NCBI RefSeq assembly: GCF_037038585.1
Contig: NC_092525.1
Span: 86,874-150,873, forward strand
DNA from: Patagioenas fasciata
Lineage: Eukaryota > Chordata > Aves > Columbiformes > Columbidae
Direction of reading: 5' to 3'
DNA: 64,000 nucleotides
In this document: positions 31,796 through 64,000 of the stretch, piece by piece
How positions within the stretch are numbered: position 1 is the first letter of the stretch
Layout: every line of letters starts with the position of its first letter
The notes under the pieces: generated by a model
Told to the model about the DNA's origin: nothing
Database searches by the model: none
What the model saw: only the letters and a program-made list of their open reading frames with translations
Made by a program: the position numbers and the translations under genes

Positions 31796-31797
31796 TT

Positions 31798-32769: not shown

Positions 32770-33019
32770 CTTCAGTCACTCAGCAGATCAAAAATGCGGA
32801 TCATTTCTCACCTGCCCACCTCCCAAACCCCAGCCTATGTCCCCTGCTTCCAGCTTACCAGAGCCCAGATTAAAGGAGGATTTCAGAGGCCATGCCAAGT
32901 TCTGCTGCTCCTCGTTCGGGTTGCCAGTCTTCCTCCTCGCTCTGGAATTGCAGGTCAACCGCCTTCCTGTTCTTCTTTGATTGACGCTGAGCTGCCGCGT
33001 TACCCGCTGCCGTCTGAGC

Positions 33020-36000
33020 GGATCTCGGGGAGCCTCTGGAACCGCCAGAGCGCTCCCCCCACCAACATTCTCTTGCCTTGTTTTCGGGGTTCCTCTTCAC
33101 CAGCTGAGGCGCCCTCCCACCCCCCGCCGCCCTCTTACCTTTTTCTAGAGGTCTCTTGAGCCACCAGCAAGCTCCCCCGCACCTTCCCTCAGCGATCTTG
33201 GCCCGCCAGAGGCCTGCCCCTCGTCAGCCTCCTCCCCTTTTCCTGGGTGCTGCTTGAACCACTGGTGGGCTCCCCTCCACCATCCTCTCGTCCTTTGTAG
33301 GGGAGTCTTGTGACTCACCAGAGCGCTCTCCGCCGTTGCCTTGCTGGGGTTATTGACACCGCTTGACTTGCCAGAGCGCTCCCCCTCGCAGTTCTCTTGT
33401 TGGATTTCTTGGGACCTTTTGAACCATTGGAACAACGGGAATGCTCCCCCCCACTGTGACCTTGCCTTTCTTCAGTGCCATCTTGACGTGCTGGAGCACT
33501 TCCCCGCGCCGTCCTCTTGCCTTTTACTGGGGAGTCTCTTGAATATCCACAGCACTCCCCCCTGCCATCCTTTACCAGATTTTTTGACACTTCTTGACAT
33601 CTCGGAGTGCTCTCACTCACCCTTGTCTTGCCTATTTTCAGGGCGCTCCTGTCCCGCTGGATGCTCCTCCCTGCTGTCCTATTGCCAGATTGAGAATTCT
33701 CGACCTGTCCCAGCGCTACCCCACCGTCCTTCTGCCTTCTACCTGGGAAGTCACTTGAAGAACTGGAGCACTCCCCCCTGCTGTCCTCTTGCCTTTCTTC
33801 ACTGAGATTTTGGCCTGCCAGAGCACTCCTCCCTGTTGTCCTCTTACTGGATTTCTTGGGACCTCTTGACCCACTGGGTTTCTCCTCCTGCTGTCCTTTT
33901 GCCTTTCTTTAGTACAATCTCAGCCTGCTGGAGCGCTCCCCCTCGCCGTCCTCCTGCTGGATTTCTTGGAACCTCTTGACCCCTTAGGGCGTTCCCCCTG
34001 CCACCCTCTTGTGGTTTTTGGGGGAGTCTTGTGATCAACCAGGCCGTTTCCCCCCACCATCCTCTTCCCCTTTTCCTGGGTGCTTCTTGATCCACCAGAG
34101 TGCTCTCAAAGCTGCCTGTTACCATCCTCTAACCATTCTCTTGCCTTTTTTGGTGGAGTCTTGTGACTCACCGGAGCGTTCTCCACCATTGTCTTGCTGG
34201 ATTTGTTGACATCGCTTGACCTGCCGGAGCGCTCCCCCTCACAGTTCTCTTCCTGGATATCTTGGGACATTTTGAACCACTGGGGGGCTCCCACCCGCCA
34301 TCCTCTTACCGCATTTATTGAGACGTCCTGATCTGCCAGAGCGTTCCCCCTCGCCGTCCTTTTGCTGGATTTCTTGGGATGCCTTAAACAACTGTGGGGC
34401 TCCCACCCACCATCCTCTAACCGCATTTATCGAGATTTCCTGATCTGCTGGAGCGCTCCCCCTTGCCGTCCTCTTGCTGGATTTCTTGGGATCTCTTGGA
34501 CCACTGGGGGGGCTCCCACCCGCCATCCTCTTACCGCATTTATTGAGACTTCCTGATCTGCTGGATTGCTCTCCCCCTGGCCTTCCTCTTGGGCTTTTTT
34601 GGGGGAGTCTTCTTCACACATCCGAGCGCTCTCCCTCACCCTTGTCTTGCCTCTAGTCAGGGCGCTCTTCTCCCGCTGGAACGCTCCTCCCCGCCATCCT
34701 ATTGCCAGACCGAGAATTCTTGACCTGCCGCAGTCCTGCCCCGCCATGCTCCTGCCTTCTGCCTGGGAAGTCACTTGAAGAACTGGAGCGCTCTCCCCCG
34801 CTGTCCTCTTGCCTTTCCTCAGTGGGATTTTGGCCTGCTAAAGAGCTCCTCCCTGTCGTCCTCTTGCTGGATTTCTTGGGACTTCTTGACCCATTAGGGC
34901 GTTCCCCCTGCCACCCTCTTGTGGTTTTTGGGGGAGTCTTGTGACCAACCAGGCCGTTTCCCCCCACCATCCTCTTCCCCTTTTCCTGGGTGCTTCTTGA
35001 TCCACCAGAGTGCTCCCCTGCACCATTCTTTTGCCTTTTTTGGGAGAGTCTTGTGACTCGCCGGAGAGTTCTCCACCATTGTCTTGCTGGATTTCTTGAC
35101 ATCGCTTGACCTGCCGGAGCGCTCCCCCTCGCAGTTCTCTTGCTGGATTTCTTGGGACGTCTTAAACAACTGAGGGGCTCACACCCACCATCCTCTAACT
35201 GCATTTATCGAGATTTCCTGATCTGCCGGAGCGCTCGCCCCTGCTGTCCTCTTGCTGGGTTTCTTGGGACCTCTTGACCCACACGAGCTCTCCTCCCCAC
35301 CGTCTTCTTGCCGGACTTATTGAGACTTCTTGACCCGCCAGAGTGTTCCCCCTCATCATCCTCCTGCCTTTTTCTGGGGATTCTCTTCAACAACTGAAGA
35401 GCTCCCCCGCACTGTCCTCTTCCCTTTTTTCTGGGTGATTCGTGAATCACCGGTGAGCTTCTCCTTACCACCCTCTTGGGCTTTTTTCAGAGCAACCTTG
35501 ACCCATCAGAGCACCCCCTCACCGTCCTCTTGCCAGATGTACTGAGGGTTCTTCATCTGCCACAGCGCTCCCCCACGCCGTCCTCTTGCTGGATTTCCTG
35601 GAACCTTGTGAACCACTGGGGGGCTCCCACCCACCATGCTTTTACCGCATTTATTGAGACGTCCTGATCTGCCAGAGCGCTCCCCCTCGCCGTCCTCTTG
35701 CTGGATTTCTTGGGATCTCTTGGACCACTGGGGGGGCTCCCACCAGCCATCCTCTTACCGCATTTATCGAGACTTCCTGATCTGCTGGAGCGCTCCCCCT
35801 CGCCGTCCTCTTGCTGGATTTCTTGGGTCCTCTTGACCCATTAGGGCGTTCCCCCTGCCACCCTCTTGTGTTTTCTGGGGGAGTCTTGTGACCAACCAGA
35901 GTGCTCCCCCCCACCATCTTCTTCCCCTTTTCCTGGGTGCTTCTTGATCCACCAGAGTGCTCCCCTGCACCATTCTCTTGCCTTTTTTTGGGGGAATCTT

Positions 36001-36870
36001 GTGACTCACCGGAGCGTTTTCCACCATTGTCTTGCTGGATTTCTTGACACCGCTTGACCTGTTGGAGCGCTCTCCCTCACAGTTCTCTTGCTGGATATCT
36101 TGGGACCTCTTGAACCACTGGGGAGCTCCCACCTGCCACCTTCTTACCGCATTTATTGAGACTTCCTGATCTGCTGGATTGCTCTCCCCACCGGCCTTCC
36201 TCTTGCACTTTTTGGGGGAGTCTTCCTGACACGTCCGAGTGCTCTCCCTCACCCTTGTCTTGCCTCTAGTCAGGGGGCTCTTCTCCCGCTGGAACGCTCC
36301 TCCCCGCCATCCTATTGCCAGACTGAGAATTCTTGACCTGCCGCAGTCCTGCCCCGCCATGCTCCTGCCTTCTGCCTGGGAAGTCACTTGAAGAACTGGA
36401 GCGCTCTCCCCCGCTGTCCTCTTGCCTTTCCTCAGTGGGATTTTGGCCTGCTAAAGAGCTCCTCCCTGTCGTCCTCTTGCTGGATTTCTCGGTACCTCTT
36501 GACCCACTGGGTCTCTCCTCCTGCCGTCCTTTTGCCTTTCCTTAGTACATTCTTGGTCTGCTGGAGTGCTCCCCCCCACCATCCTCTTGCTGGATTTCTC
36601 GGGACCCCTTGTCCCATATAGGACATTCCCCCCCACCACCATCCTGTTGTGTTTTTTAGGAGAGTCTTGTGATCGACCAGAGCGCTCCCCCCTTGACATC
36701 CTCTTCCCCTTTTTCTGGGTGACTTTTGAACCACTGGTGAACTCTCCCCCATCATCCTCTTGCCACATATATTGAGACTTGTTGATCCGCCAGAGCGCTT
36801 CCCCCACTGTCCTCTTGCCAGATTTACTGATACCTCTTGTCCTGTCAGAGCGCTCCCTCTCGCAGTCCTC
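33020..36870. repeat. 56-bp monomer array of unit 1
   Basis: About 69 monomers in ~3.85 kb. Two alternating types, one with GCTGGATTTCTTGGGACC and one with ACCGCATTTATTGAGAC, form ~111-bp dimers. Common core: GAGCGCTCCCCCTCGCCGTC. The minus strand is nearly stop-free in all frames by composition. 56 is not a multiple of three, so no frame repeats monomer by monomer. Confidence 0.9.
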
Positions 36871-36938
36871 TTTGTTCAGTTTGTAGGGTAGGAGGGGGGA
36901 TCTCTGATTACAGAAAGGTCCCTTTGTTCTAGGAGACA

Positions 36939-38634
36939 TTCCCTTGCTCCATGCTTCAGGTTGCCCATCTTCCCTCTCATTTTCAATATGCACGTCCATC
37001 ACCTTCCTCCTCTTCTTTCTTGATCCCTCGACTCCCGGATGAACTCAAATCCTCTTTCTTGATCACTCTTTCTCGTAAGTTCACAACCTTACTTTCCTTT
37101 CTTGCTTTCGCCTTTGTGAGCTGCTCCACCCAAACCGAAATGCCCTGAAGACAGAAATACACCCACCCCAAGCCCGTACAGTCACATAGGGGGTGAGTCC
37201 GCTCGCTGACGCATCCCCACATCCCACAGCAAGCCCACCTTGCCTTGGCCCCGGCCCCCCGCACAGGCCTTCCCACCAACCCAGCCCCTCCGTAGCAGCA
37301 CAGTTTCCCAGCATGCACCCCACAAAGACTTTCTTTGCCAGTCACCCCTGGCACTTACAGCAACACACCACATCAGCATCAAGAGCCCTGGGAGTGGAGA
37401 GCTGGCCAGGCCCTCACCCCGGCAGGATCCTCTTCCCCCTCCTTTAGCTGATGGCAGACAGACAAGACACCTCCCAAGAGGTGTCCAGCCCTCTCTCTCA
37501 ACCACTCATGAGTACAAAAGCCCAGCCTCTACTCACCCACCCCGCCTCCCAAAACCCCACCAGCAGCCCCTGGTCCCAGCTGAACAGCAGCCAGTGCTGA
37601 AGATCTGGCTCGTGTTGTCGGACACAACCTTCCCATGGATGTCTGGGCCCCTGAGCAGTTTCCAGGGGTGGGAGGGCGCAGTCCTGATTACAGGGAGGTC
37701 CCTGTCCCAAGGGGGACATTTTCTTCCTCCTCACTCCTGACTCGCAGCTCCATCACCTTCCTCCTCTTCTTTCTTGATCCCTCCTGACTCGCAGGTCTAC
37801 CACCGTCATCTTCTTTCTTGATCCCTGTTGACTTGCAGATGCACTCCAATCCTCTTTCTTGATCGCTCTTCCTCGTAGGTTCACCACCTTCCTCTTCTTT
37901 CTTGCTTTCGCCTTTGCGAGCTGCTCCACCCGAACAGAGATGCACAGAAAACAAAAATATACCCACCCCAGGCCCGTACAGTCACACGACGGGGCGAGTC
38001 CGGTCGCTGACGCATCCCCACACCCCACCACAAGGCCACCTTGCCTTGGCCCCGGCCCCCCGCACAGGCCTTCCCACCAACCCAGCCCCTCCGTAGCAGC
38101 ACAGTTTCCCAGCATGCACCCCACAAAGACTTTCTTTGCCAGTCACCCCTGGCACTTACAGCAACACACCACACCAGCATCAAGAGCCCTGGGAGTGGAG
38201 AGCTGGCCAGGCCCTCACCCCGGCAGGATCCTCTTCCCCCTCCTTTACCTGCTGGCAGACAGACACCTCCCAAGGGATGACCACCCTGCTCCCTTAACTG
38301 CTCCCAAGTCCAAGAGCCCAGCCCCTGCTCACCACCCCCACCTCCCAAAACACAGCCAACAGCCCCTGCTCCCATTTTACCACTTTACCCCCGAGCACGG
38401 TTTCTAGGGGTGGGAGGGGGACGCACTAATCACAGATCGTTCCCTGTGCTTAAGGATACATTATCCTTCTCGCTGGCTCAGCCTGCCCATCTTCCTCCTC
38501 ACTCTTGACTCGTAGCTCCATCACCTTTCTCCTCTTTTGTCCCCTCCTGACTCACAGGTCCACCACTGTCATCTTCTTTCTTGACTCTGCTTGACTCACA
38601 GGTGCGCTCCAATCCTCTTCCGTGATCGCTCTTC
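36939..38634. repeat. 0.8-kb sub-repeats of unit 1
   Basis: Equivalent of 560-2255 with few base changes. Continues after the ERV at 39615-40080. Confidence 0.8.
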
Positions 38635-39614
38635 TGTGTCAGTACACGGAAGACCGGGCACATGAGAAACTGCAAGAGTCAACAGCATGAGAACAAGCAT
38701 TAGTGGAAAAATACAAGAACAAAGGACTGTATGCTATGTGATACATCAAGGACAGAGGAGTTGATACAGGATTGATGCATCAAGGACAGAGGGACAGCTT
38801 GTGATAGACAAAAAAGGTGTTGATGGCAGTGACTTTGGTGGGAACACAAAACACATCACTTATGTAATGACTAACTTAGCTAATCAACAAATGCTTGAGC
38901 AAGCATCATAGCGAGTATAAACGCAAGCCTGAATTTGTAATAAACATCTCTCATTGCACCTTAAAAGAGAGTCCGTACCGCATTCGCTACAAATGGCGCC
39001 CTGGAACAGGGACTTTCAGCGTGCCTATAAAGGCAGTAGCCGCTCTGGTAGCGAAGCCCAATCGAACCAGGAAACAGGACCGGGAACCAGGACAGTGCGC
39101 GCCCACCACCAACGAAAGGTGAGCGATTGGGAACCATGGGAGGGAAGTTATCCCTTAAGCAAAGACAAACCCTGGATGTCCTTCAACATGCGCTACAAAC
39201 GCAAAATCAGGATGTATCAGGGGTCTGATTGGTGAGTTTATTAGAATGGATGGCTAATCATGTGCTAGACTTTCCTACAACTGGTACATTTCAGTTGGAG
39301 ACATGGCACAAAGATGAATGAGAATTATATGAACAGGTAACGACTGGAGATAAAGCTGCTTGCAAATATTCATCTACTTGGGGAAAAATTATGACTACTA
39401 AGATACAGGATACAGGACTGATACATCAGGGACAGAGGGACAGCTTACTATAGAAAAAAATGCGTATATGGCAGTTACATCGCTCATGTAATGTCTAACT
39501 TAGCTAAAGAGCAAATGCTTGAGCAAGCATCATAGCGAGTATAAATGCAAACCTGAGTTTGTAATAAATGTCTCTCATGGCACCTTACCGTGAGTCCACG
39601 CCAGATTCGCTACA
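38635..39614 (+). mobile_element. Small Lys-type ERV, unit 1 copy
   Basis: Same element and same CTCTTC target duplication as 2256-3235, so it was duplicated together with the unit and not inserted again. Confidence 0.85.
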
Positions 39615-40855
39615 CTCTTCCTCATAGGTTCACCACCTTCCTCTCCTTCCTTGCTTTTCCTTTGCACGCTGCTCCACCTGAAGAGAAACACACAGAGGAC
39701 TGAGCTACACCAGCCCAAGGGCACTACAATCAGACAGGGGCTGAGTCCGGGGGCTGACACCTCCCCACACCCCACAACGAGCCCACCTTGCCTTGGCCCC
39801 GGCCCCTCGCACATGCCTTAGAGATATCATAGCTCAGTACAAATCCCCACAGTCCTCACCTGCTGTTTGGTGCTTGCGGAGGGTCACACTCCCTGTGCCC
39901 CAGGGCACTGGCCCTACACGGCCAAGCTCGGCAGCGGGACTGTCTGGAGCTGCCGCTGGCTGGTTCTCCAGCTTTAGGGTCACCCGCAGAAGCCCGCTCT
40001 CCTCAGCTCTGCACACCCATCCAGTTGCGCCGCCCAGGCAAAGTCAGCTTCACCCTCTGCTCTACACCTCACCTGCAAACAACCAACTCTTCAACTGACA
40101 ACTGTCCAAAACCCACCGACAAACTCTCCACACCTCAGCCTTTCGTTTGCAACTGCTGCCTCTAGTGCATCTCACAGACAAGCCTTCAAAATCCCCTCAT
40201 CCTGCAATAACACTCCAGCACTGATCACCTGCGGGAACAACTACCACAATACCATGCAAACACCAACCAGTTCTGGCACGGAAATATCACTTTCTCCTCA
40301 AGATTCCACCCTACACCAACTGCTGACAAACACACGCTGTCCTCACCAAAGCCAAACGCTGCAACAACCAGCGACAACTCAAATTTGCGTGGGCGGTGCA
40401 AAATTGCAGGGGTGAGCTAACGCAGAGCTGGGCTTGAAAGCTGCAGAGTGTGCACCCTGTGGTATAACGTGGCGAGCTACTGCCATTCTGCCTTCTCCCT
40501 GGGAGAAGCGCGTGAGCAGAGGCTGCTTCAAGGCACGATGGGAACGGTTTGGTTCTCCGGGTCTCTCAGGGCGAGAGCGATAAATGTGATCTGTGGCGTG
40601 GCGCAGGAACTTCCCGTACACTTGCTCCTCCATTCGGTCTCGGGTGCTGCAAGAGAGGGAGCGAGAGATTCAGGGCAAGATTGACAACCTCGGCGTCCCC
40701 GTCCCAGCCACGGGTCACCCAAACCTGCAGACATCCCGGGAGGCCCCCTAAGATTTACACTCCCCTATGCCCCACCCTTGAAGCCTGGACATCGCCAGAA
40801 CCATAGAGCAAGTATTTCTTGAGGAGGCACCCAAAGGCTCCGTGTTCTCTTTCAG

Positions 40856-41116
40856 GCAGATGCTAGCGCAAGATTGCAAATCATCTCACAGCTACCAGGA
40901 AGGTAAAAAATAACGTCTTGAAATGGGAAAGGAACAGGTATTGTTTCTCTTCATCACCTCCCTCATTGCCACGTTATCAAGGTCTCCCGCAATGTTCCAC
41001 AGGAAACTTGAAGCTTGGAATTCCTGGTATTCTGAACCTGGGCAAGAAAGGAAGAAAAGCATGAGACTGATCATAAAGAGGGTGGCTGCTCGTAACATGG
41101 AAAGAGCAGTAACAAG
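40856..41116 (+). other. Pair of phase-matched exon-like segments, unit 1
   Basis: 40856-40902 (47 bp) follows TTCTCTTTCAG and ends before GTAAAA. 41003-41116 (114 bp) follows GTTCCACAG and ends AACAAG before GTAAAA. The first ends in phase 2 and the second begins with the one base needed, giving a continuous frame that contains LEAWNSWYSEPGQ and then a Lys/Arg-rich helix (KRVAARNMERAV). The 100-bp intron is avian in size. No family is recognised and no further exons are found, so this is probably a captured gene piece. Confidence 0.4.
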
Positions 41117-41665
41117 GTAAAAAGATATCACTTTTCCTTAGAGAGCTCTCAAAGCTGCCTGTTAAGGACAAGAAAAACAAACTTGTGACGGACCATTACT
41201 TAAAATCCAAGGCCCAGGAACCGATCTAATGTACATTGAAACGCGGGCCACGAGACAGTGGAAGTGCCACAAGCTGAGACTGAAGGGACAGAGGATGAAT
41301 TTCCAAAGAAGTTTAGGTTTCGATGTCAAAACGGAAAATTCTACGTCATTAAAATATAATGCAAAAGTCAGTGTAAAATCAAGTAAGGCAACGACTCCAA
41401 ATGAACTCCCAGGCGCTTCAGTCACTCAGCAGATCAAAAATGCGGATCATTTCTCACCTGCCCACCTCCCAAACCCCAGCCTATGTCCCCTGCTTCCAGC
41501 TTACCTGAGCCCAGATTAAAGGAGGATTTCAGAGGCCATGCCAAGTTCTGCTGCTCCTCGTTCGGGTTGCCAGTCTTCCTCCTCGCTCTGGAATTGCAGG
41601 TCAACCGCCTTCCTGTTCTTCTTTGATGGACGCTGAGCTGCCGCGTTACCCGCTGCCGTCTGAGC

Positions 41666-44600
41666 GGATCTCGGGGAGCCTCTGGAACCGCCAGAGCGCT
41701 CCCCCCACCAACATTCTCTTGCCTTGTTTTCGGGGTTCCTCTTCACCAGCTGAGGCGCCCTCCCACCCCCCGCCGCCCTCTTACCTTTTTCTAGAGGTCT
41801 CTTGAGCCACCAGCAAGCTCCCCCGCACCTTCCCTCAGCGATCTTGGCCCGCCAGAGGCCTGCCCCTCGTCAGCCTCCTCCCCTTTTCCTGGGTGCTGCT
41901 TGAACCACTGGTGGGCTCCCCTCCACCATCCTCTCGTCCTTTGTAGGGGAGTCTCGTGACTCACCAGAGCGCTCTCCGCCGTTGCCTTGCTGGGGTTATT
42001 GACACCGCTTGACTTGCCAGAGCGCTCCCCCTCGCAGTTCTCTTGTTGGATTTCTTGGGACCTTTTGAACCATTGGAACAACGGGAATGCTCCCCCCCAC
42101 TGTGACCTTGCCTTTCTTCAGTGCCATCTTGACGTGCTGGAGCACTTCCCCGCGCCGTCCTCTTGCCTTTTACTGGGGAGTCTCTTGAATATCCACAGCA
42201 CTCCCCCCTGCCATCCTTTACCAGATTTTTTGACACTTCTTGACATCTCGGAGTGCTCTCACTCACCCTTGTCTTGCCTATTTTCAGGGCGCTCCTGTCC
42301 CGCTGGATGCTCCTCCCTGCTGTCCTATTGCCAGATTGAGAATTCTCGACCTGTCCCAGCGCTACCCCACTGTCCTTCTGCCTTCTACCTGGGAAGTCAC
42401 TTGAAGAACTGGAGCACTCCCCCCTGCTGTCCTCTTGCCTTTCTTCACTGAGATTTTGGCCTGCCAGAGCACTCCTCCCTGTTGTCCTCTCACTGGATTT
42501 CTTGGGACCTCTTGACCCACTGGGTTTCTCCTCCTGCTGTCCTTTTGCCTTTCTTTAGTACAATCTCAGCCTGCTGGAGCGCTCCCCCTCGCCGTCCTCC
42601 TGCTGGATTTCTTGGAACCTCTTGACCCCTTAGGGCGTTCCCCCTGCCACCCTCTTGTGGTTTTTGGGGGATTCTTGTGATCAACCAGGCCGTTTCCCCC
42701 CACCATCCTCTTCCCCTTTTCCTGGGTGCTTCTTGATCCACCAGAGTGCTCTCAAAGCTGCCTGTTACCATCCTCTAACCATTCTCTTGCCTTTTTTGGT
42801 GGAGTCTTGTGACTCACCGGAGCGTTCTCCACCATTGTCTTGCTGGATTTGTTGACATCGCTTGACCTGCCGGAGCGCTCCCCCTCACAGTTCTCTTCCT
42901 GGATATCTTGGGACATTTTGAACCACTGCGGGGGCTCCCACCCGCCATCCTCTTACCGCATTTATTGAGACGTCCTGATCTGCCAGAGCGTTCCCCCTCG
43001 CCGTCCTTTTGCTGGATTTCTTGGGATGCCTTAAACAACTGTGGGGCTCCCACCCACCATCCTCTAACCGCATTTATCGAGATTTCCTGATCTGCTGGTG
43101 CGCTCCCCCTTGCCGTCCTCTTGCTGGATTTCTTGGGATCTCTTGGACCACTGGGGGGGCTCCCACCCGCCATCCTCTTACCGCATTTATTGAGACTTCC
43201 TGATCTGCTGGATTGCTCTCCCCCTGGCCTTCCTCTTGCACTTTTTTGGGGGAGTCTTCTTCACACATCCGAGCGCTCTCCCTCACCCTTGTCTTGCCTC
43301 TAGTCAGGGCGCTCTTCTCCCGCTGGAACGCTCCTCCCCGCCATCCTATTGCCAGACTGAGAATTCTTGACCTGCCGCAGTCCTGCCCCGCCATGCTCCT
43401 GCCTTCTGCCTGGGAAGTCACTTGAAGAACTGGAGCGCTCTCCCCCGCTGTCCTCTCGCCTTTCCTCAGTGGGATTTTGGCCTGCTAAAGAGCTCCTCCC
43501 TGTCGTCCTCTTGCTGGATTTCTTGGGACTTCTTGACCCATTAGGGCGTTCCCCCTGCCACCCTCTTGTGGTTTTTGGGGGAGTCTTGTGACTCACCGGA
43601 GCGTTCTCCACCATTGTCTTGCTGGATTTCTTGACATCGCTTGACCTGCCGGAGCGCTCCCCCTCGCAGTTCTCTTGCTGGATTTCTTGGGACGTCTTAA
43701 ACAACTGAGGGGCTCACACCCACCATCCTCTAACTGCATTTATCGAGATTTCCTGATCTGCCGGAGCGCTCGCCCCTGCTGTCCTCTTGCTGGGTTTCTT
43801 GGGACCTCTTGACCCACACGAGCTCTCCTCCCCACCGTCTTCTTGCCGGACTTATTGAGACTTCTTGACCCGCCAGAGTGTTCCCCCTCATCATCCTCCT
43901 GCCTTTTTCTGGGGATTCTCTTCAACAACTGAAGAGCTCCCCCGCACTGTCCTCTTCCCTTTTTTCTGGGTGATTCGTGAATCACCGGTGAGCTTCTCCT
44001 TACCACCCTCTTGGGCTTTTTTCAGAGCAACCTTGACCCATCAGAGCACCCCTTCACCGTCCTCTTGCCAGATGTACTGAGGGTTCTTCATCTGCCACAG
44101 CGCTCCCCCACGCCGTCCTCTTGCTGGATTTCCTGGAACCTTGTGAACCACTGGGGGGCTCCCACCCACCATCCTTTTACCGCATTTATTGAGACGTCCT
44201 GATCTGCCAGAGCGCTCCCCCTCGCCGCCCTCTTGCTGGATTTCTTGGGACCTCTTGGACCACTGGGGGGGCTCCCACCCGCCATGCTCTTACCGCATTT
44301 ATCGAGATTTCCTGATCTGCTGGAGCGCTCCCCCTCGCCGTCCTCTTGCTGGATTTCTTGGGTCCTCTTGACCCATTAGGGCGTTCCCCCTGCCACCCTC
44401 TTGTGTTTTCTGGGGGAGTCTTGTGACCAACCAGAGTGCTCCCCCCCACCATCTTCTTCCCCTTTTCCTGGGTGCTTCTTGATCCACCAGAGTGCTCCCC
44501 TGCACCATTCTCTTGCCTTTTTTTGGGGGAATCTTGTGACTCACCGGAGCGTTTTCCACCATTGTCTTGCTGGATTTCTTGACACCGCTTGACCTGTTGG

Positions 44601-49651: not shown

Positions 49652-50200
49652 GTAAAAAGATATCACTTTTCCTTAGAGAGCTCTCAAAGCTGCCTGTTAA
49701 GGACAAGAAAAACAAACTTGTGACGGACCATTACTTAAAATCCAAGGCCCAGGAAGCGATCTAATGTACATTGAAACGCGGGCCACGAGACAGTGGAAGT
49801 GCCACGAGCTCAGACTGAAGGGACAGAGGATGAATTTCCAAAGAAGTTTAGGTTTCGATGTCAAAACGGAAAATTCTACGTCATTAAAATATAATGCAAA
49901 AGTCAGTGTAAAATCAAGTAAGGCAACGACTCCAAATGAACTCTCAGGCGCTTCAGTCACTCAGCAGATCAAAAATGCGGATCATTTCTCACCTGCCCAC
50001 CTCCCAAACCCCAGCCTATGTCCCCTGCTTCCAGCTTACCTGAGCCCAGATTAAAGGAGGATTTCAGAGGCCATGCCAAGTTCTGCTGCTCCTCGTTCGG
50101 GTTGCCAGTCTTCCTCCTCGCTCTGGAATTGCAGGTCAACCGCCTTCCTGTTCTTCTTTGATTGACGCTGAGCTGCCGCGTTACCCGCTGCCGTCTGAGC

Positions 50201-53200: not shown

Positions 53201-53826
53201 CCACCTTCTTACCGCATTTATTGAGACTTCCTGATCTGCTGGATTGCTCTCCCCACCGGCCTTCCTCTTGCACTTTTTTGGGGGAGTCTTCTTGACACGT
53301 CCGAGTGCTCTCCCTCACCCTTGTCTTGCCTCTAGTCAGGGCGCTCATCTCCCGCTGGAACGCTCCTCCCCGCCATCCTATTGCCAGACTGAGAATTCTT
53401 GACCTGCCGCAGTCCTGCCCCGCCATGCTCCTGCCTTCTGCCTGGGAAGTCACTTGAAGAACTGGAGCGCTCTCCCCCGCTGTCCTCTTGCCTTTCCTCA
53501 GTGGGATTTTGGCCTGCTAAAGAGCTCCTCCCTGTCGTCCTCTTGCTGGATTTCTCGGGACCCCTTGTCCCATATAGGACATTCCCCCCCACCACCATCC
53601 TGTTGTGTTTTTTAGGAGAGTCTTGTGATCGACCAGAGCGCTCCCCCCTTGACATCCTCTTCCCCTTTTTCTGGGTGACTTTTGAACCACTGGTGAACTC
53701 TCCCCCTTCATCCTCTTGCCACATATATTGAGACTTGTTGATCCGCCAGAGCGCTTCCCCCACTGTCCTCTTGCCAGATTTACTGATACCTCTTGTCCTG
53801 TCAGAGCGCTCCCTCTCGCAGTCCTC
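50201..53826. repeat. 56-bp monomer array of unit 3
   Basis: Same order, with dimers deleted near 51657 and 53558. Confidence 0.9.
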
Positions 53827-55590
53827 TTTGTTCAGTTTGTAGGGTAGGAGGGGGGATCTCTGATTACAGAAAGGTCCCTTTGTTCTAGGAGACATTCCCT
53901 TGCTCCATGCTTCAGGTTGCCCATCTTCCCTCTCATTTTCAATATGCACGTCCATCACCTTCCTCCTCTTCTTTCTTGATCCCTCGACTCCCGCATGAAC
54001 TCAAATCCTCTTTCTTGATCACTCTTTCTCGTAAGTTCACAACCTTACTTTCCTTTCTTGCTTTCGCCTTTGTGAGCTGCTCCACCCAAACCGAAATGCC
54101 CTGAAGACAGAAATACACCCACCCCAAGCCCGTACAGTCACATAGGGGGTGAGTCCGGTCGCTGACGCATCCCCACATCCCACAGCAAGCCCACCTTGCC
54201 TTGGCCCCAGCCCCCCGCACAGGCCTTCCCACCAACCCAGCCCCTCCGTAGCAGCACAGTTTCCCAGCATGCACCCCACAAAGACTTTCTTTGCCAGTCA
54301 CCCCTGGCACTTACAGCAACACACCACATCAGCATCAAGAGCCCTGGGAGTGGAGAGCTGGCCAGGCCCTCACCCCGGCAGGATCCTCTTCCCCCTCCTT
54401 TAGCTGATGGCAGACAGACAAGACACCTCCCAAGAGGTGTCCAGCCCTCTCTCTCAACCACTCATGAGTACAAAAGCCCAGCCTCTACTCACCCACCCCG
54501 CCTCCCAAAACCCCACCAGCAGCCCCTGGTCCCAGCTGAACAGCAGCCAGTGCTGAAGATCTGGCTCGTGTTGTCGGACACAACCTTCCCATGGATGTCT
54601 GGGCCCCTGAGCAGTTTCCAGGGGTGGGAGGGCGCAGTCCTGATTACAGGGAGGTCCCTGTCCCAAGGGGGACATTTTCTTCCTCCTCACTCCTGACTCG
54701 CAGCTCCATCACCTTCCTCCTCTTCTTTCTTGATCCCTCCTGACTCGCAGCTCTACCACCGTCATCTTCTTTCTTGATCCCTGTTGACTTGCAGATGCAC
54801 TCCAATCCTCTTTCTTGATCGCTCTTCCTCGTAGGTTCACCACCTTCCTCTTCTTTCTTGCTTTCACCTTTGCGAGCTGCTCCACCCGAACAGAGATGCA
54901 CAGAAAACAAAAATATACCCACCCCAGGCCCGTACAGTCACACGAGGGGGCGAGTCCGGTCGCTGACGCATCCCCACACCCCACCACAAGGCCACCTTGC
55001 CTTGGCCCCGGCCCCCCGCACAGGCCTTCCCACCAACCCAGCCCCTCCGTAGCAGCACAGTTTCCCAGCATGCACACCACAAAGACTTTCTTTGCCAGTC
55101 ACCCCTGGCACTTACAGCAACACACCACACCAGCATCAAGAGCCCTGGGAGTGGAGAGCTGGCCAGGCCCTCACCCCGGCAGGATCCTCTTCCCCCTCCT
55201 TTACCTGCTGGCAGACAGACACCTCCCAAGGGATGACCACCCTGCTCCCTTAACTGCTCCCAAGTCCAAGAGCCCAGCCCCTGCTCACCACCCCCACCTC
55301 CCAAAACACAGCCAACAGCCCCTGCTCCCATTTTACCACTTTACCCCCGAGCACGGTTTCTAGGGGTGGGAGGGGGACGCACTAATCACAGATCGTTCCC
55401 TGTGCTTAAGGATACATTCTCCTTCTCGCTGGCTCAGCCTGCCCATCTTCCTCCTCACTCTTGACTCGTAGCTCCATCACCTTTCTCCTCTTTTGTCCCC
55501 TCCTCACTCACAGGTCCACCACTGTCATCTTCTTTCTTGACTCTGCTTGACTCACAGGTGCGCTCCAATCCTCTTTCGTGATCGCTCTTC

Positions 55591-56571
55591 TGTGTCAGTA
55601 CACGGAAGACCGGGCACGTGAGAAACTGCAAGAGTCAACAGCATGAGAACAAGCATTAGTGGAAAAATACAAGAACAAAGGACTGTATGCTATGTGATAC
55701 ATCAAGGACAGAGGAGTTGATACAGGATTGATGCATCAAGGACAGAGGGACAGCTTGTGATAGACAAAAAAGGTGTTTATGGCAGTGACTTTGGTGGGAA
55801 CACAAAACACATCACTTATGTAATGCCTAACTTAGCTAATCAACAAATGCTTGAGCAAGTATCATAGCGAGTATAAACACAAGCCTGAATTTGTAATAAA
55901 CATCTCTCATTGCACCTTAAAAGAGAGTCCGTACCGCATTCGCTACAAATGGCGCCCTGGAACAGGGACTTTCAGCGTGCCTATAAAGGCAGTAGCCGCT
56001 CTGGTAGCGAAGCCCAATCGAACCAGGAAACAGGACCGGGAACCAGGACAGTGCGCGCCCACCACCAACGAAAGGTGAGCGATTGGGAACCATGGGAGGG
56101 AAGTTATCCCTTAAGCAAAGACAAACCCTGGATGTCCTTCAACATGCGCTACAAACGCAAAATCAGGAGGTATCAGGGGTCTGATTGGTGAGTTTATTAC
56201 AATGGATTGCTAATCATGTGCTAGACTTTCCTACAACTAGTACATTTCAATTGGAGACATGGCACAAAGATGAATGAGAATTATATGAACAGGTAACGAC
56301 TGGAGATAAAGCTGCTTGCAAAATATTCATCTACTTGGGGAAAAATTATGACTACTAAGATACAGGATAAAGGACTGATACATCAGGGACAGAGGGACAG
56401 CTTACTATAGAAAAAAATGCGTATATGGCAGTTACATCGCTCGTGTAATGTCTAACTTAGCTAAAGAGCAAATGCTTGAGCAAGCATCATAGCGAGTATA
56501 AATGCAAACCTGAGTTTATAATAAATGTCTCTCATGGCACCTTACCGTGAGTCCACGCCAGATTCGCTACA
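55591..56571 (+). mobile_element. Small Lys-type ERV, unit 3 copy
   Basis: 981 bp, one extra A near 56321. Shares variants with the left copy at 2256-3235 (for example GCCTAAC and GTATCATAG) rather than with units 1 and 2. Confidence 0.85.
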
Positions 56572-57812
56572 CTCTTCCTCATAGGTTCACCACCTTCCTC
56601 TCCTTCCTTGCTTTTCCTTTGCACGCTGCTCCACCTGAAGAGAAACACACAGAGGACTGAGCTACACCAGCCCAAGGGCACTACAATCAGACAGGGGCTG
56701 AGTCCGGGGGCTGACACCTCCCCACACCCCACAACGAGCCCACCTTGCCTTGGCCCCGGCCCCTCGCACATGCCTTAGAGATATCATAGCTCAGTACAAA
56801 TCCCCACAGTCCTCACCTGCTGTTTGGTGCTTGCGGAGGGTCACACTCCCTGTGCCCCAGGGCACTGGCCCTACACAGCCAAGCTCGGCAGCGGGACTGT
56901 CTGGAGCTGCCGCTGGCTGGTTCTCCAGCTTTAGGGTCACCCGCAGAAGCCCGCTCTCCTCAGCTCTGCACACCCATCCAGTTGCGCCGCCCAGGCAAAG
57001 TCAGCTTCACCCTCTGCTCTACACCTCACCTGCAAACAACCAACTCTTCAACTGACAACTGTCCAAAACCCACCGACAAACTCTCCACACCTCAGCCTTT
57101 CGTTTGCAACTGCTGCCTCTAGTGCATCTCACAGACAAGCCTTCAAAATCCCCTCATCCTGCAATAACACTCCAGCACTGATCACCTGCGGGAACAACTA
57201 CCACAATACCATGCAAACACCAACCAGTTCTGGCACGGAAATATCACTTTCTCCTCAAGATTCCACCCTACACCAACTGCTGACAAACACACGCTGTCCT
57301 CACCAAAGCCAAACGCTGCAACAACCAGCGACAACTCAAATTTGCGTGGGCGGTGCAAAATTGCAGGGGTGAGCTAACGCAGAGCTGGGCTTGAAAGCTG
57401 CAGAGTGTGCACCCTGTGGTATAACGTGGCGAGCTACTGCCATTCTGCCTTCTCCCTGGGAGAAGCGCGTGAGCAGAGGCTGCTTCAAGGCACGATGGGA
57501 ACGGTTTGGTTCTCCGGGTCTCTCAGGGCGAGAGCGATAAATGTGATCTGTGTCGTGGCGCAGGAACTTCCCGTACACTTGCTCCTCCATTCGGTCTCGG
57601 GTGCTGCAAGAGAGGGAGCGAGAGATTCAGGGCAAGATTGACAACCTCGGCGTCCCCGTCCCAGCCACGGGTCACCCAAACCTGCAGACATCCCGGGAGG
57701 CCCCCTAAGATTTACACTCCCCTATGCCCCACCCTTGAAGCCTGGACATCGCCAGAACCATAGAGCAAGTATTTCTTGAGGAGGCACCCAAAGGGTCCGT
57801 GTTCTCTTTCAG

Positions 57813-58073
57813 GCAGATGCTAGCGCAAGATTGCAAATCATCTCACAGCTACCAGGAAGGTAAAAAATAACGTCTTGAAATGGGAAAGGAACAGGTATTG
57901 TTTCTCTTCATCACCTCCCTCATTGCCACGTTATCAAGGTCTCCCGCAATGTTCCACAGGAAACTTGAAGCTTGGAATTCCTGGTATTCTGAACCTGGGC
58001 AAGAAAGGAAGAAAAGCATGAGACTGATCATAAAGAGGGTGGCTGCTCGTAACATGGAAAGAGCAGTAACAAG
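57813..58073 (+). other. Exon-like pair, unit 3
   Basis: Segments 57813-57859 and 57960-58073, the same as in units 1 and 2. Confidence 0.4.
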
Positions 58074-58372
58074 GTAAAAAGATATCACTTTTCCTTAGAG
58101 AGCTCTCAAAGCTGCCTGTTAAGGACAAGAAAAACAAACTTGTGACGGACCATTACTTAAAATCCAAGGCCCAGGAAGCGATCTAATGTACATTGAAACG
58201 CGGGCCACGAGACAGTGGAAGTGCCACGAGCTCAGACTGAAGGGACAGAGGATGAATTTGCAAAGAAGTTTAGGTTTCGATGTCAAAACGGAAAATTCTA
58301 CGTCATTAAAATATAATGCAAAAGTCAGTGTAAAATCAAGTAAGGCAACGACTCCAAATGAACTCTCAGGCG

Positions 58373-61300
58373 CTTCAGTCACTCAGGAGATCAAAAATGC
58401 GGATCATTTCTCACCTGCCCACCTCCCAAACCCCAGCCTATGTCCCCTGCTTCCAGCTTACCTGAGCCCAGATTAAAGGAGGATTTCAGAGGCCATGCCA
58501 AGTTCTGCTGCTCCTCGTTCGGGTTGCCAGTCTTCCTCCTCGCTCTGGAATTGCAGGTCAACCGCCTTCCTGTTCTTCTTTGATTGACGCTGAGCTGCCG
58601 CGTTACCCGCTGCCGTCTGAGCGGATCTCGGGGAGCCTCTGGAACCGCCAGAGCGCTCCCCCCACCAACATTCTCTTGCCTTGTTTTCGGGGTTCCTCTT
58701 CACCAGCTGAGGCGCCCTCCCACCCCCCGCCGCCCTCTTACCTTTTTCTAGAGGTCTCTTGAGCCACCAGCAAGCTCCCCCGCACCTTCCCTCAGCGATC
58801 TTGGCCCGCCAGAGGCCTGCCCCTCGTCAGCCTCCTCCCCTTTTCCTGGGTGCTGCTTGAACCACTGGTGGGCTCCCCTCCACCATCCTCTCGTCCTTTG
58901 TAGGGGAGTCTCGTGACTCACCAGAGCGCTCTCCGCCGTTGCCTTGCTGGGGTTATTGACACCGCTTGACTTGCCAGAGCGCTCCCCCTCGCAGTTCTCT
59001 TGTTGGATTTCTTGGGACCTTTTGAACCAGTGGAACAACGGGAATGCTCCCCCCCACTGTGACCTTGCCTTTCTTCAGTGCGATCTTGACGTGCTGGAGC
59101 ACTTCCCCGCGCCGTCCTCTTGCCTTTTACTGGGGAGTCTCTTGAATATCCACAGCACTCCCCCCTGCCATCCTTTACCAGATTTTTTGACACTTCTTGA
59201 CATCTCGGAGTGCTCTCACTCACCCTTGTCTTGCCTATTTTCAGGGCGCTCCTGTCCCGCTGGATGCTCCTCCCTGCTGTCCTATTGCCAGATTGAGAAT
59301 TCTCGACCTGTCCCAGCGCTACCCCACCGTCTTTCTGCCTTCTACCTGGGAAGTCACTTGAAGAACTGGAGCACTCCCCCCTGCTGTCCTCTTGCCTTTC
59401 TTCACTGAGATTTTGGCCTGCCAGAGCACTCCTCCCTGTTGTCCTCTTACTGGATTTCTTGGGACCTCTTGACCCACTGGGTTTCTCCTCCTGCTGTCCT
59501 TTTGCCTTTCTTTAGTACAATCTCAGCCTGCTGGAGCGCTCCCCCTCGCCGTCCTCCTGCTGGATTTCTTGGAACCTCTTGACCCCTTAGGGCGTTCCCC
59601 CTGCCACCCTCTTGTGGTTTTTGGGGGAGTCTTGTGATCAACCAGGCCGTTTCCCCCCACCATCCTCTTCCCCTTTTCCTGGGTGCTTCTTGATCCACCA
59701 GAGTGCTCTCAAAGCTGCCTGTTACCATCCTCTAACCATTCTCTTGCCTTTTTTGGTGGAGTCTTGTGACTCACCGGAGCGTTCTCCACCATAGTCTTGC
59801 TGGATTTGTTGACATCGCTTGACCTGCCGGAGCGCTCCCCCTCACAGTTCTCTTCCTGGATATCTTGGGACATTTTGAACCACTGGGGGGCTCCCACCCG
59901 CCATCCTCTTACCGCATTTATTGAGACGTCCTGATCTGCCAGAGCGTTCCCCCTCGCCGTCCTTTTGCTGGATTTCTTGGGATGCCTTAAACAACTGTGG
60001 GGCTCCCACCCACCATCCTCTAACCGCATTTATCGAGATTTCCTGATCTGCTGGAGCGCTCCCCCTTGCCGTCCTCTTGCTGGATTTCTTGGGATCTCTT
60101 GGACCACTGGGGGGGCTCCCACCCGCCATCCTCTTACCGCATTTATTGAGACTTCCTGATCTGCTGGATTGCTCTCCCCCTGGCCTTCCTCTTGCACTTT
60201 TTTGGGGGAGTCTTCTTCACACATCCGAGCGCTCTCCCTCACCCTTGTCTTGCCTCTAGTCAGGGCGCTCTTCTCCCGCTGGAACGCTCCTCCCCGCCAT
60301 CCTATTGCCAGACTGAGAATTCTTGACCTGCCGCAGTCCTGCCCCACCATGCTCCTGCCTTCTGCCTGGGAAGTCACTTGAAGAACTGGAGCGCTCTCCC
60401 CCGCTGTCCTCTTGCCTTTCCTCAGTGGGATTTTGGCCTGCTAAAGAGCTCCTCCCTGTCGTCCTCTTGCTGGATTTCTTGGGACTTCTTGACCCATTAG
60501 GGCGTTCCCCCTGCCACCCTCTTGTGTTTTCTGGGGAGTCTTGTGACCAACCAGGCCGTTTCCCCCCACCATCCTCTTCCCCTTTTCCTGGGTGCTTCTT
60601 GATCCACCAGAGTGCTCCCCTGCACCATTCTTTTGCCTTTTTTGGGAGAGTCTTGTGACTCGCCGGAGAGTTCTCCACCATTGTCTTGCTGGATTTCTTG
60701 ACATCGCTTGACCTGCCGGAGCGCTCCCCCTCGCAGTTCTCTTGCTGGATTTCTTGGGACGTCTTAAACAACTGAGGGGCTCACACCCACCATCCTCTAA
60801 CTGCATTTATCGAGATTTCCTGATCTGCCGGAGCGCTCGCCCCTGCTGTCCTCTTGCTGGGTTTCTTGGGACCTCTTGACCCACACGAGCTCTCCTCCCC
60901 ACCGTCTTCTTGCCGGACTTATTGAGACTTCTTGACCCGCCAGAGTGTTCCCCCTCATCATCCTCCTGCCTTTTTCTGGGGATTCTCTTCAACAACTGAA
61001 GAGCTCCCCCGCACTGTCCTCTTCCCTTTTTTCTGGGTGATTCGTGAATCACCGGTGAGCTTCTCCTTACCACCCTCTTGGGCTTTTTTCAGAGCAACCT
61101 TGACCCATCAGAGCACCCCCTCACCGTCCTCTTGCCAGATGTACTGAGGGTTCTTCATCTGCCACAGCGCTCCCCCACGCCGTCCTCTTGCTGGATTTCC
61201 TGGAACCTTGTGAACCACTGGGGGGCTCCCACCCACCATCCTTTTACCGCATTTATTGAGACGTCCTGATCTGCCAGAGCGCTCCCCCTCGCCGCCCTCT

Positions 61301-64000
61301 TGCTGGATTTCTTGGGACCTCTTGAACCACTGGGGGCCTCCCACCCACCATACTCTTACCGCATTTATCGAGACTTCCTGATCTGCCGGAGCGCTCCCCC
61401 TCACCGTCCTCTTGCTGGATTTCTTGGGTCCTCTTGACCCATTAGGGCGTTCCCCCTGCCACCCTCTTGTGTTTTCTGGGGGAGTCTTGTGACCAACCAG
61501 AGTGCTCCCCCCCACCATCTTCTTCCCCTTTTCCTGGGTGCTTCTTGATCCACCAGAGTGCTCCCCTGCACCATTCTCTTGCCTTTTTTTGGGGGAATCT
61601 TGTGACTCACCGGAGCGTTTTCCACCATTGTCTTGCTGGATTTCTTGACACCGCTTGACCTGTTGGAGCGCTCTCCCTCACAGTTCTCTTGCTGGATATC
61701 TTGGGACCTCTTGAACCACTGGGGAGCTCCCACCTGCCACCTTCTTACCGCATTTATTGAGACTTCCTGATCTGCTGGATTGCTCTCCCCACCGGCCTTC
61801 CTCTTGCACTTTTTTGGGGGAGTCTTCTTGACACGTCCGAGTGCTCTCCCTCACCCTTGTCTTGCCTCTAGTCAGGGCGCTCATCTCCCGCTGGAACGCT
61901 CCTCCCCGCCATCCTATTGCCAGACTGAGAATTCTTGACCTGCCGCAGTCCTGCCCCGCCATGCTCCTGCCTTCTGCCTGGGAAGTCACTTGAAGAACTG
62001 GAGCGCTCTCCCCCGCTGTCCTCTTGCCTTTCCTCAGTGGGATTTTGGCCTGCTAAAGAGCTCCTCCCTGTCGTCCTCTTGCTGGATTTCTCGGTACCTC
62101 TTGACCCACTGGGTCTCTCCTCCTGCCGTCCTTTTGCCTTTCCTTAGTACATTCTTGGTCTGCTGGAGTGCTCCCCCCCACCATCCTCTTGCTGGATTTC
62201 TCGGGACCCCTTGTCCCATATAGGACATTCCCCCCCCCCACCATCCTGTTGTGTTTTTTAGGAGAGTCTTGTGATCGACCAGAGCGCTCCCCCCTTGACA
62301 TCCTCTTCCCCTTTTTCTGGGTGACTTTTGAACCACTGGTGAACTCTCCCCCATCATCCTCTTGCCACATATATTGAGACTTGTTGATCCGCCAGAGCGC
62401 TTCCCCCACTGTCCTCTTGCCAGATTTACTGATACCTCTTGTCCTGTCAGAGCGCTCCCTCTCGCAGTCCTCTTTGTTCAGTTTGTAGGGTAGGAGGGGG
62501 GATCTCTGATTACAGAAAGGTCCCTTTGTTCTAGGAGACATTCCCTTGCTCCATGCTTCAGGTTGCCCATCTTCCCTCTCATTTTCAATATGCACGTCCA
62601 TCACCTTCCTCCTCTTCTTTCTTGATCCCTCGACTCCCGGATGAACTCAAATCCTCTTTCTTGATCACTCTTTCTCGTAAGTTCACAACCTTACTTTCCT
62701 TTCTTGCTTTCGCCTTTGTGAGCTGCTCCACCCAAACCGAAATGCCCTGAAGACAGAAATACACCCACCCCAAGCCCGTACAGTCACATAGGGGGTGAGT
62801 CCGCTCGCTGACGCATCCCCACATCCCACAGCAAGCCCACCTTGCCTTGGCCCCGGCCCCCCGCACAGGCCTTCCCACCAACCCAGCCCCTCCGTAGCAG
62901 CACAGTTTCCCAGCATGCACCCCACAAAGACTTTCTTTGCCAGTCACCCCTGGCACTTACAGCAACACACCACATCAGCATCAAGAGCCCTGGGAGTGGA
63001 GAGCTGGCCAGGCCCTCACCCCGGCAGGATCCTCTTCCCCCTCCTTTAGCTGATGGCAGACAGACAAGACACCTCCCAAGAGGTGTCCAGCCCTCTCTCT
63101 CAACCACTCATGAGTACAAAAGCCCAGCCTCTACTCACCCACCCCGCCTCCCAAAACCCCACCAGCAGCCCCTGGTCCCAGCTGAACAGCAGCCAGTGCT
63201 GAAGATCTGGCTCGTGTTGTCGGACACAACCTTCCCATGGATGTCTGGGCCCCTGAGCAGTTTCCAGGGGTGGGAGGGCGCAGTCCTGATTACAGGGAGG
63301 TCCCTGTCCCAAGGGGGACATTTTCTTCCTCCTCACTCCTGACTCGCAGCTCCATCACCTTCCTCCTCTTCTTTCTTGATCCCTCCTGACTCGCAGCTCT
63401 ACCACCGTCATCTTCTTTCTTGATCCCTGTTGACTTGCAGATGCACTCCAATCCTCTTTCTTGATCGCTCTTCCTCGTAGGTTCACCACCTTCCTCTTCT
63501 TTCTTGCTTTCACCTTTGCGAGCTGCTCCACCCGAACAGAGATGCACAGAAAACAAAAATATACCCACCCCAGGCCCGTACAGTCACACGAGGGGGCCAG
63601 TCCGGTCGCTGACGCATCCCCACACCCCACCACAAGGCCACCTTGCCTTGGCCCCGGCCCCCCGCACAGGCCTTCCCACCAACCCAGCCCCTCCGTAGCA
63701 GCACAGTTTCCCAGCATGCACACCACAAAGACTTTCTTTGCCAGTCACCCCTGGCACTTACAGCAACACACCACACCAGCATCAAGAGCCCTGGGAGTGG
63801 AGAGCTGGCCAGGCCCTCACCCCGGCAGGATCCTCTTCCCCCTCCTTTACCTGCTGGCAGACAGACACCTCCCAAGGGATGACCACCCTGCTCCCTTAAC
63901 TGCTCCCAAGTCCAAGAGCCCAGCCCCTGCTCACCACCCCCACCTCCCAAAACACAGCCAACAGCCCCTGCTCCCATTTTACCACTTTACCCCCGAGCAC
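58373..64000 (+). repeat. Macrosatellite unit 4, cut by the window end
   Basis: 5628 bp present. Its 56-bp array is full length (58623-62472), apart from one single-monomer variant near 60526. The window ends within sub-repeat B, just before the expected ERV. Confidence 0.92.
58623..62472. repeat. 56-bp monomer array of unit 4
   Basis: Full complement of monomers as in unit 1. A C-run length change lies at about 62231. Confidence 0.9.

What the first reader, a model, noticed from the sequence alone, without database searches (positions are those of the whole stretch)
32770..64000. Layered macrosatellite: 56-bp monomers in 111-bp dimers in 8.5-kb units
At least four tandem units of 8646, 8535, 8422 and >5600 bp are nearly identical. 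Each contains an internal satellite, triplicated 0.8-kb blocks, an ERV and exon-like pieces. I know of no described avian macrosatellite with this composition, but I could not search.
Basis: seen in the sequence. Interest (0 to 1): 0.75.

Follow-up and report, generated by a model that had tools for sequence, protein, structure and literature searches.

The report
Bird chromosome-end macrosatellite with spacers
In what looks like a bird genome, an 8.5-kilobase repeat joined to a roughly 28-kilobase spacer sits near the ends of many chromosomes, facing the same way at 14 of them, and has grown to about 7.5 million bases at one other end, on a plan like the satellite caps of chimpanzee and gorilla chromosomes.

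Summary
The tandem array is real: units 32769-41414 (8646 bp), 41415-49949 (8535), 49950-58371 (8422) and a fourth cut by the window end.

Each unit is a 56-bp satellite of varying length plus a 4.54-kb core. Satellite lengths differ by near-whole numbers of 55.7-bp monomers. The unit holds an ERV remnant and no Pfam match over cut-off.

In the window's own genome (1.45 Gb, probably a bird) a unit tag occurs 533 times and the array-spacer junction 100 times. Of those 100, 74 lie in the first 7.5 Mb of contig C6, 5 on small contigs, and 21 within 460 kb of 14 ends of 11 other large contigs. All 21 have one orientation to the end; six of the 14 ends show telomere repeats.

So this is a subtelomeric module, macrosatellite plus CpG-island spacer, spread between chromosome ends and hugely expanded at one. 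The closest known plan is the African-ape subterminal cap; sequences were not compared. Methylation, expression, species and long-read support were not testable.

The parts
1..4287 (+). U0: partial unit (497 bp of satellite end plus 3790 bp of core), ending inside the INS segment at the array edge
4464..5169 (.). 52-bp minisatellite (about 12 copies) at the start of the spacer
5140..5990 (.). CpG island of the spacer: GC 0.75, CpG observed/expected 0.93; 105 first-look candidates in the genome, of which 40 were scored, all 40 at 99-100% over full length
4288..32768 (.). spacer of the module (28.5 kb here, including a 6.1-kb young provirus)
20708..26830 (+). young provirus, absent from the one other spacer copy read at this site: 453-bp LTRs 99.78% identical, GCAAAT direct repeats outside; dUTPase, protease, reverse transcriptase and integrase matches; 356 bp between the pol frame and the 3' LTR
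27600..32142 (-). older provirus pieces in the spacer (integrase zinc domain over cut-off; RNase H and gag zinc finger below cut-off; LTR-gag end about 79% identical to the unit's remnant); left limit approximate
32143..32768 (+). EDGE: diverged unit fragment (88-91% identical in its block-C parts) at the entry of the array
32769..41414 (+). U1, 8646 bp: satellite part 32769-36876, core 36877-41414
41415..49949 (+). U2, 8535 bp: satellite part 41415-45411, core 45412-49949
49950..58371 (+). U3, 8422 bp: satellite part 49950-53832, core 53833-58371
58372..64000 (+). U4, cut by the window end (satellite part 58372-62478)
33180..36876 (.). 56-bp satellite of U1, monomers about 63% alike, locally dimeric
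36877..38634 (.). blocks A and B of the core (the stretch 36877-38649 is 1773 bp in 16 of 17 copies measured, 972 bp in one)
38635..39614 (+). ERV remnant (LTR, gag start, partial LTR), CTCTTC at 38629-38634 and 39615-39620
40078..41414 (.). INS segment, 1337 bp, absent at the window's array entry (32768/32769) but present at the entry of another module (C6, about 77.8-79.1 kb)

Best explanation
It is a subtelomeric segmental-duplication module, probably of a bird: a homogenised macrosatellite array (8.4-8.6-kb units here) joined in fixed order and orientation to a spacer of about 28 kb that begins with a CpG island. Shown: the units, their near-identity, length change in the satellite, module junctions at 14 other chromosome ends in one orientation to the end (six of them with telomere repeats), a multi-megabase expansion in alternating orientation blocks at the left end of C6, and a young provirus inserted after the spacer was duplicated. 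Inferred: (1) unequal crossover and gene conversion, registered on the 56-bp monomers, change unit length and keep units alike; (2) ectopic exchange between chromosome ends spreads the module, which preserves its orientation to the telomere; (3) at C6 tandem and inverted duplication of whole modules built a heterochromatic cap; (4) the CpG island of each spacer stays unmethylated inside methylated satellite, as the spacers of ape caps do.
For: Junction 32-mer: 100 places, reversed control 0, all 100 listed. 74 are on C6, 5 on small contigs (C95 three, C114, C273), 21 on 14 ends of 11 large contigs. All 10 left-end places are + and all 11 right-end places are - (sign test over 14 ends P=0.00012); all lie within 460 kb of a contig end. 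Telomere repeats were seen at six of those 14 ends: C1, C5 and C10 left, C2, C3 and C12 right.
Unit tag: 533 copies, reversed control 0 (100 places listed).
Cap: of 16 readable samples between 2.25 and 7.46 Mb of C6, 15 were unit DNA (one of them over 1162 of 1500 bases) and 1 was spacer; 0 of 7 samples from 7.50 to 9.0 Mb were unit DNA.
Ten satellite parts measured (2271-4109 bp): distances from 4108 bp equal 0, 2, 4, 12, 17, 18.9 and 33 monomers of 55.7 bp; block A/B stretch 1773 bp in 16 of 17 copies.
17 core copies differ by 0.32% on average, the nearest relative often being megabases away or on another contig.
CpG-type changes: array 45 of 1686 CpG positions, island 1 of 193.
Uninterrupted site of the young provirus in another spacer copy.
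Against: The cap's order rests on one assembly. A run of 203 N was seen in one C6 sample outside the cap and three cap samples read N, so scaffolding joins and orientation errors inside the repeats are possible. No reads, Hi-C or FISH were available. The 14 other ends have only one to three junctions each, so a cap is shown at one end only. Telomere repeats were not seen in the terminal 120 bases of four other module ends (C3 left; C5, C11 and C48 right), and four more could not be read. The island signal rests on one pair of copies (Fisher one-sided P=0.041). Spacer (island included) and array show similar CpG decay (ratio 4.0 and 5.1), so any unmethylated pocket would be the island, not the whole spacer. 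Core copies came from the window and from the 40 best hits, which favours similarity.
Confidence: 0.8

Rival explanations
1. Assembly artefact: haplotypes or repeat copies wrongly strung together in tandem.
For: Near-identical units, a large repeat block at a contig end, and a run of 203 N in one C6 sample.
Against: Neighbouring units differ by scattered substitutions and by satellite indels of about two monomers. The same junction is found at 14 ends of 11 other contigs. Pieces of two other spacer copies differ from the window's by 1-2%, and one of them lacks the provirus.
Confidence: 0.06
2. A gene amplicon (like HINT1W on the chicken W or the testis-gene arrays of chicken dot chromosomes): the unit carries a multi-exon gene and copies are kept for dosage.
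For: Open frames of up to 228 codons in the unit and splice-like motifs on the minus strand; GC 54%, close to the 53.6% given for the HINT1W array.
Against: No Pfam match over its cut-off in six frames of the unit outside the ERV remnant (weak sub-cut-off hits only). No HINT1 match (best E 1.0). Frames break in two of four related pieces and block A/B changes are even over codon positions. No relative of the one unit frame searched.
Confidence: 0.08
3. Sex-chromosome or pericentromeric satellite: C6 would be the W, or the block a centromere.
For: Large satellite blocks on the chicken W and in acrocentric pericentromeric heterochromatin (PMC9974502, passages).
Against: C6 carries two DM-domain genes that I read as DMRTA2 and DMRTB1 (names recalled), and three DM hits read as the DMRT1 cluster are on C48. 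Junctions sit at both ends of C2, C3 and C5.
Confidence: 0.04

Closest known systems
Subterminal heterochromatic caps of gorilla, chimpanzee and bonobo (pCht satellite with spacer duplications of modal length 32-34 kb; PMC12058530, section on subterminal heterochromatin read, other passages)
   Same: Satellite tracts near telomeres of many chromosomes, interrupted by duplicated spacers of about 30 kb; megabase size; exchange between chromosome ends proposed
   Different: Probably a bird; the tract is an 8.5-kb composite macrosatellite with a 56-bp period, not a 32-bp AT-rich satellite (sequences not compared); junctions on C6 are a median 66 kb apart rather than tracts of 335-536 kb; a multi-megabase block seen at one end only; methylation not measured
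D4Z4 at gorilla 4qter (short D4Z4 arrays, 4q35.2 sequences and about 35 kb of LINE repeats repeated at least twice; PMC1852401, abstract seen)
   Same: Subtelomeric kilobase-unit array joined to a block of about 35 kb that is itself repeated
   Different: D4Z4 units carry the DUX4 retrogene (abstract in the listing); no gene found here
crowSat1, a 14-kb satellite of the hooded crow (PMC6115840, passages; original paper not held)
   Same: Avian, kilobase-scale tandem repeat
HINT1W array of the chicken W (5,648-bp unit, 52 copies; PMC9974502, passages)
   Same: Avian kilobase-unit tandem array with similar GC
   Different: Gene-bearing and W-linked; no HINT1 match here
PO41 subtelomeric repeat of chicken and quail (PMC4301066, abstract seen)
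   Same: Avian subtelomeric tandem repeat
   Different: 41-bp repeat, not a composite kilobase unit

Membership tests
Macrosatellite | Kilobase-scale unit in head-to-tail tandem array | tested here: met
Macrosatellite | Tens to hundreds of near-identical copies | tested here: met
   533 tag matches with at most 2 mismatches; 0.32% mean divergence in 17 copies, a sample biased to similarity; 98.1-99.9% best match in 15 blind samples
Macrosatellite | Copy number varies between individuals | not testable with these tools
   one assembly only
Ape-type subterminal cap (architecture) | Satellite tracts close to telomeres on many chromosomes | tested here: met
   junctions at 14 ends of 11 other large contigs plus C6; telomere repeats seen at six of the 14
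Ape-type subterminal cap (architecture) | Recurrent spacer of about 30 kb made of duplicated DNA | tested here: met
   28.5 kb in the window; 100 junctions; 237 first-look candidates for one spacer piece, 40 scored at 99-100%; full spacer length not measured at other ends
Ape-type subterminal cap (architecture) | Spacer hypomethylated between hypermethylated satellites | tested here: inconclusive
   only by CpG decay: island 1 of 193 against array 45 of 1686, P=0.041, one island pair; spacer as a whole (30 of 1298) close to the array
Ape-type subterminal cap (architecture) | Same satellite sequence (pCht or alpha satellite) | not tested
   no sequence comparison made; period about 56 bp in 8.5-kb units here against 32 or 171 bp there; membership of that sequence family is not claimed
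Ape-type subterminal cap (architecture) | Multi-megabase blocks at many capped ends, late replication | tested here: inconclusive
   one block of about 7.5 Mb (C6), one to three junctions at each of the other 14 ends; replication not testable
HINT1W-type avian amplicon | HINT1 exons in the unit | tested here: not met
   tblastn with a typed HINT1 protein: best E 1.0 in the window
PO41 / CNM 41-bp avian repeats | 41-bp period | tested here: not met
   best lags 56 and 112 in all four arrays of the window
crowSat1 | Sequence identity to crowSat1 | not testable with these tools
   sequence not held; paper not held

The most novel reading that the evidence does not exclude
Birds have independently evolved subterminal caps on the plan found in African apes and siamang: hypermethylated satellite tracts punctuated by a spacer of about 30 kb carrying an unmethylated CpG island, with the pocket serving as the site of exchange between non-homologous chromosome ends. 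The fixed orientation at all 14 other ends would be the footprint of that exchange, and C6 an end caught in runaway expansion.
Probability: 0.35. Interest if true: 0.85.

Novelty: new variant of a known kind. Interest (0 to 1): 0.66.

Why it matters
If confirmed, the 'satellite plus 30-kb spacer' chromosome cap arose outside primates from different building blocks. That would argue for a shared mechanical or epigenetic cause rather than primate accident, and would make the idea that the spacer is an exchange site testable in a second lineage. It also gives a case where one chromosome end grew to megabases while 14 others show one to three junctions of the same kind, which suits studies of why arrays run away.

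Tried and rejected
Gene amplicon reading: Pfam over six frames of the unit and of the spacer from 4288 to about 20,700 (best a sub-cut-off ATP-grasp hit); the spacer from 26,831 on was tested only as two frames. HINT1 tblastn, PDB sequence search of a hypothetical spliced peptide (0 matches at E<=1), protein database search of one unit frame (277 candidates, none at E<=0.01), codon-position test. A weak MMTV_SAg hit in the satellite (E 0.00018, 22.2 bits under a cut-off of 25) is most likely composition. CTCF-like motif (consensus recalled): 18 one-mismatch sites against 6 expected, but made of two satellite words repeated, no exact site; not pursued. CR1 3'-end pattern (recalled): 1 match at 3 mismatches, chance level. 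Rfam: 0; tRNA: 0. IMG/VR scans for a satellite word and a reverse-transcriptase piece: 0. W or Z location: judged unlikely. PF12830, meant as a W/Z marker test, did not complete. A reading held for a while, that one spacer on C6 was 70 kb long with a 45-kb insert, was dropped: one search shows a second junction in between.
Full report
What is in the window. A further partial copy, 1-4287, is collinear with 36380-40668 at 98.8%. Between them lies 4288-32768, which is not unit sequence apart from diverged pieces in its last 1.4 kb. Each unit is a satellite part (4108, 3997, 3883, 4107 bp in U1-U4) followed by a core (4538, 4538, 4539 bp in U1-U3). Among U1-U4 cores differ by 0.26-0.68% and satellites by 0.21-0.70%; U0's core differs from U1-U3 by 1.3-1.4%.

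The satellite. The period is about 56 bp (highest autocorrelation at 56, then 112, in all four arrays). Monomers are about 63% alike. Dimer structure is weak overall and shows in stretches that TRF reports with period 112. Ten satellite parts were measured, four in the window and six in other loci of the same genome: nine values from 2271 to 4109 bp. Their distances from 4108 bp are 0, 2, 4, 12, 17, 18.9 and 33 monomers of 55.7 bp, while the block A/B stretch is 1773 bp in 16 of 17 copies and 972 bp in one. Unequal exchange in monomer register is the simplest cause (inference).

The core. Blocks A and B are 76% alike, and block C is a partial relative. The remnant 38635-39614 is an LTR, the start of gag and part of a second LTR, with CTCTTC on both sides (read); the two LTR parts are 76% alike. 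It is present in U0-U3 and in the other units read across that place, so it predates the amplification. A 1337-bp segment (INS) follows block C. No Pfam family passes its cut-off outside the remnant in six frames. The reading frame is not kept between related pieces.

The spacer. It starts with a 52-bp minisatellite and a CpG island at about 5140-5990 (GC 0.75, CpG observed/expected 0.93). It holds old provirus pieces on the minus strand and a young provirus at 20708-26830 with 453-bp LTRs 99.78% identical and GCAAAT on both sides. A spacer copy at C6 about 71.8 kb has the uninterrupted site, beside about 3 kb of other DNA. The order of events is then: old ERV into the unit, unit amplification, module duplication, young provirus insertion (inference from these placements). 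From 4288 to about 20,700 no Pfam match passes its cut-off.

The genome. The window is C6:86874-150873 of an assembly of 1,453,922,657 bases in 359 contigs. A 32-base tag of the core has 533 matches with at most 2 mismatches, reversed control 0; only the first 100 places are listed. A 32-base tag of the array-spacer junction has 100, all listed, reversed control 0: 74 on C6, three on C95, one each on C114 and C273, and 21 on large contigs: C1, C2, C3, C4, C5, C10 (3), C13, C47 at the left (10, all +) and C2, C3 (2), C5 (3), C11 (3), C12, C48 at the right (11, all -). Contig lengths put all 21 within 460 kb of an end. That is 14 ends of 11 contigs. Outside C6 and the small contigs no junction lies in a chromosome interior, and none is on C7-C9 or C14-C46. 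The same cannot be said of the unit tag, whose list was cut.

Telomeres. Telomere repeats were seen at six of the 14 ends with junctions (C1, C5 and C10 left; C2, C3 and C12 right) and also at C1 right and C48 left. They were not seen in the first 120 bases of C3 nor in the last 120 of C5, C11 and C48, where the contig may stop short; the remaining four could not be read. C6 begins inside satellite, so its outer end is not reached, and its last 120 bases hold no telomere repeat.

The C6 block. Junctions run from 7 kb to 7.489 Mb in five orientation blocks: 14 +, 39 -, 6 +, 4 -, 11 +. Of 16 readable samples between 2.25 and 7.46 Mb, 15 are unit DNA (one over 1162 of 1500 bases) and 1 is spacer; 0 of 7 between 7.50 and 9.0 Mb are unit DNA, one of them with two short 78-80% matches to the spacer; three further samples read N. 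Successive junctions on one strand beyond 1.4 Mb are a median 66 kb apart (9 to 526 kb), and a spacing of exactly 34,416 bp occurs three times. C6 also carries two DM-domain genes at 7.855 and 21.8 Mb, and C48 three DM hits at 72.1-72.2 Mb. I read these as DMRTA2, DMRTB1 and the DMRT1-3 cluster from the translations and from memory, which would make C48 the Z and C6 an autosome related to chicken chromosome 8 (recalled synteny). The species is not known; clusters of the feather/avian keratin family support a bird.

Homogenisation. 17 copies of 4.0 kb of core, from both orientations and from C95, differ by 0.32% on average (0 to 0.83%). U1 is closer to a copy on C95 (0.025%) than to its neighbour U2 (0.2%), and two copies 234 kb apart are identical. 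These copies came from the window and from the 40 best hits and are biased to similarity; the 15 blind unit samples match the window's best unit at 98.1-99.9%. Next to the spacer, copies decay: in the last 229 columns the edge copies of two modules carry 11 shared and 12 plus 4 private differences from U1, against 7, 19 and 9 in the preceding 3560.

CpG decay. Among 68 variable core sites 23 are CpG-type transitions although CpG positions are about 6% of the sequence. Pairwise, CpG positions change at 45 of 1686 in 16 array pieces, 30 of 1298 in spacer pieces (island included) and 1 of 193 in the island (island against array, Fisher one-sided P=0.041). This fits germline methylation of array and spacer interior and protection of the island, but the island figure is one pair of copies.

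Comparison. In gorilla, chimpanzee and bonobo, satellite tracts of 335-536 kb are interrupted by spacer duplications of modal length 32-34 kb that are pockets of hypomethylation (PMC12058530, section read), and exchange between ends is proposed there (passage). The module here has the same plan with a different period and unit; sequences were not compared. A D4Z4 block with about 35 kb of LINE repeats at gorilla 4qter is a second parallel (PMC1852401, abstract). A survey of 117 vertebrates reports that subtelomeric duplications of birds are biased to interchromosomal events (PMC13431229, passages), in line with the spread proposed here. In the listings of ten searches of the held library I saw no report of an avian cap of this kind; only the last two aimed at subtelomeres, the listings were cut to the best rows, and that library lacks most subscription papers. 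No repeat library was searched. This is weak evidence of novelty.

Limits. One assembly, no reads, no methylation data, no FISH. One sample of C6 holds a run of 203 N, so the large-scale order and orientation blocks may partly be scaffolding. Counts with 32-base tags miss degraded copies and stretches that read N.

Noticed in passing
window 20708-26830: A young provirus with 453-bp LTRs 99.78% identical and dUTPase, protease, reverse transcriptase and integrase matches; only 356 bp separate the pol frame from the 3' LTR, which leaves little room for env (inference). Described only.
   Followed up: partly
window 4464-5169: 52-bp minisatellite of about 12 copies directly between the array edge and the CpG island.
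   Followed up: no
window 14001-14500 and 18501-19000: Two further GC-rich stretches in the spacer with CpG observed/expected 0.98 and 0.83 and open frames on both strands; no Pfam match over cut-off.
   Followed up: partly
L009 (C6 about 81 kb): A shortened unit: satellite part 2271 bp and block A/B stretch 972 bp, apparently through a deletion between blocks A and B.
   Followed up: partly
C6 near 1.48-1.62 Mb: Junctions recur at exactly 34,416 bp, suggesting very recent tandem copies of a module.
   Followed up: no
C47 (70.5 Mb): A chromosome-scale contig with one junction near its left end, numbered next to the Z-like contig C48; whether it is the W was not settled because the marker search did not complete.
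   Followed up: partly
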